Positions 49,261 through 60,135 of a stretch of 64,000 bases of DNA are shown here, piece by piece. How positions within the stretch are numbered: position 1 is the first letter of the stretch; every line of letters starts with the position of its first letter. The stretch covers positions 3,596,001 through 3,660,000 of the forward strand of contig NZ_CP046600.1 in NCBI RefSeq assembly GCF_018278905.1, in the 5' to 3' direction. Both the position numbers and the translations under genes were made by a program. This DNA is from Mycobacterium spongiae. Lineage in GTDB: Bacteria > Actinomycetota > Actinomycetes > Mycobacteriales > Mycobacteriaceae. The notes under the pieces are model-generated. The model did no database searches. It was given only the letters and a program-made list of their open reading frames with translations, and had not been told where the DNA came from.

Positions 49261-52200
49261 CTAAGCGTCGTTGCCGTCCACGCCGCCGGGCAAGGTGCCC
49301 GTGCCGCCTTCGCCGCCGGTGCCTCGGAATCCGTCACCTTGGTTGCCTTGGGCACCGAAGCCGGCGGGGCCGCCGGTCCCGGCGGCGCCTCCGTTGCCGC
49401 CGTTACCGCCGGTGCCATTCGTGCCGACTACCCCACCGTTGCCGCCGTTGCCGCCATTGCCCCCGGACCCGCCGGCACCGCCCCGGGTCGTGAAGGCGTC
49501 GACGCCGCCGCCCTTGCCGCCAGTCCCGCCCTTTCCGCCGTTACCCCCGTCGCCGGCAGCGCCACCGTCGGCACCCGCTCCGCCCTCGCCACCGGTGCCC
49601 GCCGTGCCGCCGGCGCCGCCGAAACCGCCCCTGCCAAGGGTGACTTGACCTGAGGAGTTGGTGGTGTTCAACCCGAGACCGCCCTCACCGCCTTGGCCAC
49701 CGTTGCCACCGATGCCGCCGGTACCGGCAACGCTGGATGCGGTGGTGGCGGCGCCGCCGATACCGCCAGCGCCACCTTCACCGCCCATGCCCCCTCGTCC
49801 GCCGAAAATGAACTGACCGGGGGCGGAGGTGTTGGCGGCGGTACCGCCGGTGCCGCCGGTGCCGCCGGTGCCGCCGGTACCGCCGTCGCCCGCGATGCCG
49901 CCGACACCGCCGGAGCCGGTCGCCCCACCCTGGCCACCGTTACCGCCGGCACCGCCCATACCGCCGTCGTCCGCGAATCTACTGTTGCCGGGGGCGTCGT
50001 TGCCTCTGCCGCCGTTGCCGCCTTGTCCGCCCTTGCCGCCGGTGCCACCGTCTCCGTTGGTGCCACCGGCGCCGGTGTTGCCGCCCTGGCCGCCCATACC
50101 GCCGTCGCCGCCTTTGAAGCCGCTGCCGGTGCCCGCGGCGTCATCGCCGGTAGCGCCAGCACCGCCGTCACCGCCGCGGCCGCCGTCGCCGAAGGCGCCC
50201 ACGTCGCCCGCCGTGGCGCCAAATCCGCTGCCGGCCGCCCCACCGGCGCCGCCGCCACCACCGGCACCGCCCATACCGCCGCCACCGCCGTCCAGACCCA
50301 ACCCCACGCCGCTGCCACCGGCCCCGCCGGTCCCACCGGCACCGCCGCCGCCGCCTTGACCACCGCTACCGGTGGTACCGCCGATACCGGCGTCGCCGCC
50401 ATCACCACCCTGACCGCCCTCACCACCGGCGCCACCGGTCGTGCCCACCTGCCCACCGGCACCGGTCACGCCGTCACCACCCTTGCCGCCCATGCCGCCT
50501 ACGCCGCCGTCGCCCCCGGTCCCAGTCGTCCCCTGCGTAGCGCCTACAGACGAGCCGGCCGACCCGGCGATACCGCCTTGACCGCCGGCACCGCCTTTAC
50601 CGCCGTCCTGACCGGCGCCGCCGTCGCCGCCGGCCCCACCGGCGCCGCCCTCGCCGCCAGTCCCACCGCCGCCGGTGGTACCGCCGACGCCAGATTCACC
50701 ACCCTGTCCGCCCCTACCGCCCATACCACCGGCAAAGCCGTCGCCGCCGTCGACGCCATTGGCGCCTTGGCCCCCTTGCCCACCGGCGCCGCCGTCGCCG
50801 CCGGTGCCCGCGTCACCCGCTGCGGCCGCGGCGCCCGCACCGGCGCCGGCCGCCCCACCAACGCCCGCGTTGCCGCCAAAGCCGCCGTTGCCGCCGTTGG
50901 TGCCGACACCGTTCATGCCGGTCGAACCGGCACCCCCGGTTCCCCCGTGACCGCCGTCTCCGCCGCGGCCACCCGCACCGTTGGTGCCGCCGGTACCGGC
51001 GGCGCCGCCCGCACCGCCCGCACCGCCGCGGCCGCCGTCAAAGCCCCGAGCACCCGCGGCGGCATTACCGCCGTCTCCGCCGGCGCCGCCCATGCCTCCG
51101 GCTCCGCCGTTGCCGCTGCTCCCCGCGGCACCGACCGTCCCCATCACTCCGCCCGCACCACCGGCGCCACCGGCGCCGGCCTCGCCGCCGGTCCCGCCGG
51201 TCCCGCCGAACCCGCCCCGTTGGCCAATGCCCACGCCGCTGGCGCCCTCGCCGCCGGTGCCGCCCATTCCGCCGTCACCGCCGACCCCGCCAGCCCCACC
51301 GGTGCCGAACAGCAGCGCGGTGTTGGCCCCGCCGGCCCCACCTGCCCCACCGGCCCCACCGTCGAAGCCCATCCCGCCGTTGAAGCCCGCCTGGCCGAAC
51401 TGGCCCGGGTTGCCCGCTGCACCGGCGTCACCCATGCCACCAGTACCGCCGGCCCCGCCGGCCCCGCCGGTGCCGAACAGCAGCTGCCGGTTCGCGCCGC
51501 CAGCCCCGCCAGCGCCGCCATCCCCGCCGGACAGGCCCGCCCCGCCCTGGCCACCAACGCCGGCCAGGCCACCGAAGAGCCCATTGGCACCGCCAATCCC
51601 GCCAGCCCCGCCGGCCCCGCCGACAATGATCGCGTCGCCGCCAGCACCGCCGGCCCCGCCAGACCCATACAGGAGTCCGCCTGACCCACCGGCCCCGCCG
51701 GCCTGCCCGGGCGCGCCCGAACCCCCGTCACCACCATGGCCGAACAAGAACCCGGCATCGCCGCCCGCTTGCCCGGTGCCCGGGGCGCCATCGACGCCAT
51801 CACCGATCCACGGACGGCCCAGCAGCGCCTCGGTGGGTGCGTTGACCACCTGCAGCACGTTCTGCTCGATGGTCCGCAATAGCGGAGATTGCCCATTGAT
51901 TCCGAAGAAGCCGGAGATGTTGTGGCCGACGTTGGCGGCGCCGGAGATCAGGTCGGGTGTGGCGAGGTTGGCGGTGCCGGTGTTGAACAGGCCGGAGATG
52001 TAGGTGCCGAGATTGGTGATGCCCGATAGGTGGCTGCCGACGTTTTCGAAGCCGGAGTTGAAGTCGCCGCCGTGGTTGAAGAAGCCTGAGGTGCCGGTTC
52101 CGGAGTTGCCGAAGCCCGAGGAACCACCCGCGCCGGTGTTGAACAAGCCCGACGACACGCCAACGGTGTTGTTGAACAGGCCCGGATGGAACTCGAAGAA

Positions 52201-60135: not shown

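What the first reader, a model, noticed from the sequence alone, without database searches (positions are those of the whole stretch)
49261..60135. PPE-MPTR protein carrying a PE_PGRS-type C-terminus
One continuous frame joins a PPE domain, MPTR repeats, the linker NAPTEALLGRP with GRPWIGDG (GRPLI-type) and about 840 residues of GGAGG-type PGRS. The linker and PGRS normally follow a PE domain. A swap of the secretion module from PE to PPE would put a PGRS surface domain under PPE-type export.
Basis: partly seen in the sequence, partly recalled or inferred. Interest (0 to 1): 0.8.

Follow-up and report, generated by a model that had tools for sequence, protein, structure and literature searches.

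The report
Fused PPE-MPTR and PGRS surface protein
In a sponge-derived relative of the tuberculosis bacterium, one giant gene joins two kinds of surface protein that are normally made separately, which offers a natural test of how such proteins are sent to the cell surface.

Summary
Confirmed: window 49261-60135 (-) is one open frame of 3624 aa (342 kDa): PPE domain, MPTR repeats, a PE_PGRS-type linker (NAPTEALLGRPWIGDG) and about 845 aa of PGRS. The genome length (5,581,157) is that of Mycobacterium spongiae FSD4b-SM, assembled from PacBio reads and corrected with Illumina reads. Of 150 linker hits scored in this genome (of 200 candidates), this is the only one without a PE domain upstream. 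No comparable join appeared in 396 Mycobacterium genomes, but that search was partial and tuned to this junction. PE/PPE swaps (LipY) and pe/ppe gene fusions are known, and both parent families use ESX-5 and PPE38. So: a new variant of a known kind, one strain, no expression evidence seen.

The parts
49261..60135 (-). whole fusion ORF, 3624 aa, 341.9 kDa
59638..60132 (-). PPE domain (aa 2-166), with WxG at aa 57
   Evidence: Pfam PF00823 204 bits; WxG by pattern
55738..59554 (-). MPTR copy A of the tandem duplication
   Evidence: self-comparison at offset 3831; only two copies found in the genome
55724..55737 (-). 14-nt stretch between the two MPTR copies
51907..55723 (-). MPTR copy B; differs from A only at 52224-52225; ends at the fusion join
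51799..51909 (-). PE_PGRS-type linker (aa 2743-2779), NAPTEALLGRPWIGDG; the PE domain that should precede it is missing
49261..51798 (-). PGRS domain (aa 2780-3624) and stop
   Evidence: Pfam PF21526 28.4 bits over cut-off 27 in the tail alone; composition
47228..49228 (+). flank: TPM-domain protein, Rv2345-like (name recalled)
   Evidence: Pfam PF04536; next to esx genes in 15 relatives
60554..60618 (-). sequence just downstream of the esxO-like gene that relatives share (hairpin-like by eye): the insert ends below it
   Evidence: blastn of relatives' Rv2345-esxO gaps, 11 of 11 match the esxO side, starting between 60554 and about 60621
60619..60903 (-). flank: WXG100 protein, esxO-like (name recalled)
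   Evidence: Pfam PF06013
60936..61232 (-). flank: WXG100 protein, esxP-like (name recalled)
   Evidence: Pfam PF06013
62383..63966 (-). flank: phospholipase C-like phosphoesterase
   Evidence: Pfam PF04185 445 bits; 439 bits to NCBIfam PC_PLC, below its cut-off of 580

Best explanation
It is a real, lineage-specific fusion gene. A PPE-MPTR gene, read to its natural end, was joined in frame to a PE_PGRS gene that had lost its PE domain; it sits as one ~11-kb insert between the Rv2345-like and the esxO-like gene, next to the PPE38-type cluster (shown: structure and position; inferred: how it formed, most simply by a deletion between neighbouring same-strand PPE-MPTR and PE_PGRS genes). The MPTR domain was duplicated in tandem (shown: near-perfect copies; the order of the two events is open). 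Most likely it works as an oversized ESX-5 substrate: the PPE domain pairs with a PE protein made from another gene, that complex is exported in a PPE38-dependent way, and the MPTR and PGRS repeats end up on the mycomembrane, with PGRS as a C-terminal flat repeat domain held to the MPTR part because the PecA-cleaved PE domain is missing (all inferred from published work on the parent families).
For: Single open frame with Pfam PPE, Pentapeptide_2 and (tail alone) PGRS hits. Join at a normal PPE-MPTR end: 7 of 9 long PPE paralogs of this genome stop 2 to 11 residues after an [SA]G[FL][FL] tail, and a homologous tail in relative G104 reads ...VSGVGNKGQEIAGFFHDFKLS* against ours ...ISGAANVGHNISGFF|GINGQSPLL. 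The linker starts about where PE_PGRS linkers start after EAA. The 3,817-bp MPTR unit occurs only twice in the genome, both times here; the next matches are 75% or less (40 of 107 candidates scored), so other loci are unlikely to have confused the assembly. No MPTR or PGRS gene at this place in 19 readable neighbourhoods of 20 fetched; 15 have esxO directly beside Rv2345. The precursor gene order (PPE-MPTR, a 272-aa ORF, then PE_PGRS, same strand) exists at 4.69-4.73 Mb; that cluster gives the two best PPE-domain DNA matches (74%, 73%, 40 of 262 candidates scored) and the best linker-PGRS DNA match of this genome (69%, 11 of 359 scored).
Against: No expression or secretion data seen for this protein; the species paper reports at least 29 PE/PPE proteins by proteomics but its tables could not be opened here. 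By protein the linkers of the suggested donor cluster rank only 8th and 12th, and the MPTR part is closest to other paralogs (L001 by protein; 638043 by DNA), so the donor is not settled. A single strain is known. The structure model of the junction failed (mean pLDDT 36) and supports nothing.
Confidence: 0.6

Rival explanations
1. Silent or neutral fusion: the gene is an accident of recombination in a repeat-rich family and is barely expressed or not exported; the PGRS tail has no role.
For: One strain, no orthologue found among relatives; pe/ppe genes fuse and rearrange in M. tuberculosis; the MPTR copies are nearly identical, so the present form is young or homogenised.
Against: The frame is intact over 3624 codons with even GC3 across the parts, although the linker-PGRS part is about 30% diverged in DNA from its nearest paralogs found.
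Confidence: 0.25
2. The linker-PGRS tail came from the second, internal linker of a double-linker PE_PGRS protein (a movable linker+PGRS unit), not from a PE_PGRS gene that lost its PE domain.
For: 29 of 150 scored linker hits in this genome are internal by position, with a PE domain 1.1-2.0 kb upstream; relatives and M. tuberculosis have such linkers too, and relative G023 has a linker+PGRS frame with no PE before it (L063).
Against: Our linker scores best against linkers that directly follow PE domains (ranks 2-8, 63-72% identity; the best internal one ranks 9th).
Confidence: 0.15
3. Assembly artefact: PPE-MPTR and PE_PGRS reads were joined wrongly.
For: Both families are repetitive, and the join coincides with the end of a near-perfect 3.8-kb tandem repeat.
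Against: PacBio assembly with Illumina correction; the MPTR unit was found near identity only at this locus; the 14-nt stretch between the copies is in neither outer flank (compared by eye); the frame is kept.
Confidence: 0.06

Closest known systems
PPE-MPTR proteins (for example PPE56 of M. tuberculosis, named)
   Same: PPE domain plus NxGxGNxG-type repeats, giant size; the fusion keeps the whole architecture up to the usual C-terminus
   Different: followed by a PE_PGRS linker and about 845 aa of PGRS
PE_PGRS proteins
   Same: linker with a GRP-I motif and glycine-rich PGRS repeats
   Different: no PE domain, no YxxxD/E just before the linker; GRPWI instead of GRPLI
LipY, whose lipase domain follows a PE domain, a PPE domain or a signal peptide by species (PMC7550000, passages seen)
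   Same: precedent for PE and PPE domains exchanging in front of one cargo
   Different: LipY is an exchange in front of an enzyme; here a complete PPE-MPTR protein is fused in front of a repeat domain
pe/ppe gene fusions of M. tuberculosis lineages: PE_PGRS4/3, PE_PGRS20/19, ppe6/5, ppe8/7 (PMC10591178, passages seen)
   Same: neighbouring family genes merged into one frame by deletion or frameshift
   Different: those in the passages seen stay within a family (PE with PGRS, PPE with MPTR); this one crosses PPE-MPTR with PGRS
Double-linker PE_PGRS (PE_PGRS3, -4, -9, -10; Wag22)
   Same: a linker+PGRS unit that does not directly follow a PE domain
   Different: those proteins still begin with a PE domain

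Membership tests
PPE-MPTR | N-terminal PPE domain | tested here: met
   Pfam PF00823, aa 2-166, 204 bits; the motif reads APE, not PPE, at positions 7-9
PPE-MPTR | NxGxGNxG-type repeats | tested here: met
   276 NxGxxN motifs; PF01469 778 bits
PPE-MPTR | protein ends with the repeats | tested here: not met
   linker and about 845 aa of PGRS follow; of 9 long PPE ORFs read, none has a linker by pattern and 7 stop 2 to 11 residues after an [SA]G[FL][FL] tail
PE_PGRS | N-terminal PE domain | tested here: not met
   no PF00934 hit in the protein; no listed PE hit within 6 kb upstream of the linker
PE_PGRS | GRPLI-type linker | tested here: met
   NAPTEALLGRPWIGDG; 63-72% identical to the best PE_PGRS linkers of this genome; L to W in the motif
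PE_PGRS | PGRS repeats | tested here: met
   PF21526 28.4 bits, cut-off 27, in the tail scanned alone; not listed in the full-length scan
PE_PGRS | YxxxD/E export signal just before the linker | tested here: not met
   nearest Y...D/E starts at aa 2569, inside MPTR
ESX-5 / PPE38-dependent substrate | secretion lost in esx-5 or ppe38 mutants | not testable with these tools
   published for the parent families only

The most novel reading that the evidence does not exclude
A naturally occurring third architecture, PPE-MPTR-PGRS, in which a PGRS surface domain is exported by a PPE domain without any PE domain of its own. It would show that PGRS export does not need the PE module, and that PPE38 dependence may be read from the repeats or the general route rather than from PE.
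Probability: 0.35. Interest if true: 0.65.

Novelty: new variant of a known kind. Interest (0 to 1): 0.45.

Why it matters
A 2019 review asks whether PPE38 is needed for the PGRS/MPTR repeats as such or for the PE/PPE domains in front of them (PMC7028111, passages). This gene places PGRS behind a PPE domain and MPTR in one natural protein, and lacks the PE signal and the PE domain that PecA cleaves, so secretion, processing and anchoring of PGRS can be asked without an artificial construct. It also shows that recombination can cross the two families in a close relative of the tuberculosis complex.

Tried and rejected
Assembly artefact: judged unlikely (see rivals). Frameshift at the join: rejected, frame intact. 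Other PPE-PGRS fusions in the same genome: none among the 9 longest PPE ORFs by linker pattern, and no other of the 150 scored linkers lacks a PE upstream; 50 of 200 linker candidates and 63 of 213 PE candidates were not scored.

Other genomes: 198 genomes at E<=1e-15 (at most 32 candidates per genome scored), 396 at E<=1e-9 (at most 16 per genome scored) and 18 genomes, mostly PE_PGRS-rich, at E<=1e-6 (at most 150 per genome scored; 213 matches, the weakest not listed) gave no MPTR-to-linker join. Of 17 candidate loci fetched, the prompting hit is a PE_PGRS linker with a PE domain or PE remnant upstream in 15 (in L059 it is the internal second linker); in L063 it is a linker+PGRS frame with no PE, but also no PPE or MPTR, in the 200 codons before it; in L065 it is a PPE-MPTR tail that stops before any linker. 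A scan of 84,980 species for exact peptides of the junction gave 3 loci, none with the join (the window's own genome may be left out there). Plasmids: no joined match. The MTBC and M. decipiens could not be recognised in the sample, so their locus was not read; the M. tuberculosis gene order (Rv2345-Rv2346c-Rv2347c-plc-PPE38) is recalled.

A fold prediction of the junction failed (pLDDT 36). NCBIfam gave nothing for the whole protein or the tail. Papers: searches for PPE-PGRS (13 papers), PPE_PGRS (4 papers), PE_PGRS with PPE-MPTR and fusion, chimeric, domain shuffling or hybrid, and gene fusion listed no title describing a PPE protein with a PGRS domain. The papers were seen as listings only, so what they mean by the term is unchecked; of the others, passages or single sections of 15 papers were read.

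Full report
What is there. Window 49261-60135 on the minus strand is a single frame of 3624 codons starting with ATG. Pfam finds a PPE domain (aa 2-166) and 46 stretches of Pentapeptide_2, the MPTR repeat, and no PE domain; the tail from the join on, scanned alone, passes the cut-off of Pfam's PGRS model narrowly (28.4 against 27 bits), while the whole-protein scan did not list it. NAPTEALLGRP starts at aa 2765 and the PGRS part is about 845 aa, 51% glycine. The other sense frames hold 55 and 190 stops, also some within the linker-PGRS part, and first-order Markov sequences give a mean of 66 stops in the frame.

The whole MPTR domain is a direct tandem duplication: 51907-55723 and 55738-59554, 3,817 bp each, 14 nt between, differing only at two neighbouring bases. 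The unit runs from just behind the PPE domain to the last residues before the linker. It was found only twice in the genome, both times here; the next matches are 75% identical or less (40 of 107 candidates scored).

Where it is. The genome is one contig of 5,581,157 bases, the length published for Mycobacterium spongiae FSD4b-SM, a sponge isolate of the M. tuberculosis-associated phylotype, assembled from PacBio reads and corrected with Illumina reads (PMC11361433, passages and section 12 seen). The naming rests on that length match. The gene lies between a TPM-domain protein (Rv2345-like) and two WXG100 genes (esxO/esxP-like); beyond these come a phospholipase C-like gene and, past the window, two PPE genes of about 412 aa (PPE38-type by position and length) and two short PPE-MPTR genes (the M. 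tuberculosis names are recalled). I read the same neighbourhood in 20 relatives: in 15 the esxO-like gene directly follows the Rv2345-like gene (in L041 only part of it was recognised); in 2 (L043, L049) a PPE gene of about 410 aa without MPTR comes next; in 2 (L050, L051) no PPE, PE or esx gene was recognised in range; 1 (L038) ends at a contig edge and cannot tell. None of the 19 readable ones has an MPTR or PGRS gene there. The esxO side of the gap aligned to the window in 11 of 11 relatives compared, from 60554 at the earliest, so the insert fills the space between Rv2345's stop and the sequence downstream of esxO.

How unusual. With the linker as query, 150 of 200 candidates in this genome were scored, and 150 of 213 PE candidates. 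Of the 150 linkers, 119 follow a listed PE domain directly, 30 have one further upstream on the same strand, and 1, this gene, has none. One of the 30 (4853295) proved to have its own PE domain directly before it, leaving 29 internal second linkers by position (one, at 5072674, was read in L071), a known feature of some PE_PGRS proteins (PMC7550000, passages). None of the nine longest PPE frames carries a linker by pattern. Among 396 genus genomes the junction query found no second join, nor among 18 genomes at a looser limit. These searches scored only part of the candidates and are tuned to a join like this one, so PPE-PGRS proteins of another build could have been missed. A linker+PGRS frame without a PE domain does occur elsewhere (G023, L063), but with no PPE or MPTR before it.

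How it arose. Seven of nine long PPE paralogs of this genome stop 2 to 11 residues after an [SA]G[FL][FL] tail, and a homologous tail in relative G104 stops six residues after its GFF. The join is at that point. On the other side it begins about where PE_PGRS linkers begin after the PE domain's EAA. It is therefore an end-to-end fusion that lost one stop codon, whatever lay between, and a PE domain. The same-strand order PPE-MPTR, a 272-aa ORF, PE_PGRS exists in this genome at 4.69-4.73 Mb; that cluster gives the best DNA matches for the PPE domain (74 and 73%) and, within this genome, for the linker-PGRS start (69%). Against it, by protein its linkers rank 8th and 12th and the MPTR part is nearer to other paralogs. 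The donor is open, and an internal second linker as source is not excluded. Deletion fusions of adjacent pe/ppe genes are documented in M. tuberculosis (PMC10591178, passages).

How it probably works (inferred). [quoted passage not shown] The fusion keeps the PPE domain with its WxG but has no Y...D/E just before the linker, so a PE partner made elsewhere should supply the export signal. In M. marinum, PecA trims PE_PGRS proteins within the PE domain (PMC6819658, passages); here that domain is missing, so PGRS should remain tied to MPTR. The PGRS part would sit flat on the mycomembrane as proposed for PE_PGRS (PMC9436101, passages). None of this was tested on this protein, and a fold prediction of the junction was worthless (pLDDT 36).

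Verdict. It is not a clean PE-to-PPE swap, and the export route need not change. PE/PPE exchange before one cargo is known from LipY. A cross-family fusion of a whole PPE-MPTR with PGRS was not described in any passage or title I saw, so I call it a new variant of a known kind, found in one strain, useful as a natural separation of PGRS from PE.

Noticed in passing
51907-55723 and 55738-59554: A 3,817-bp tandem duplication covering the whole MPTR domain, copies differing at one dinucleotide only: very young, or kept alike by gene conversion.
   Followed up: partly
own genome: 29 of 150 scored linkers are, by position, second internal linkers of PE_PGRS genes, 28 of them about 1.1-1.3 kb behind the PE domain.
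   Followed up: partly
own genome 4.69-4.73 Mb (L003, L005, L078, L079): Alternating same-strand PE_PGRS and giant PPE-MPTR genes, a possible source of PPE-PGRS fusions.
   Followed up: partly
62383-63966 and L070: Only one phospholipase C-like gene was seen between the esx pair and the PPE38-type genes, where five of the 20 relatives' loci show three.
   Followed up: no
L063 (G023) around 1742-1897: A linker followed by PGRS repeats in a short frame without a PE domain before it.
   Followed up: no
L029 (G104) 3951000-3956500: A PE_PGRS protein whose linker is lengthened by repeats (HNPSQALANAQQHLLTGVHDAEQ...) and occurs twice in one frame.
   Followed up: no
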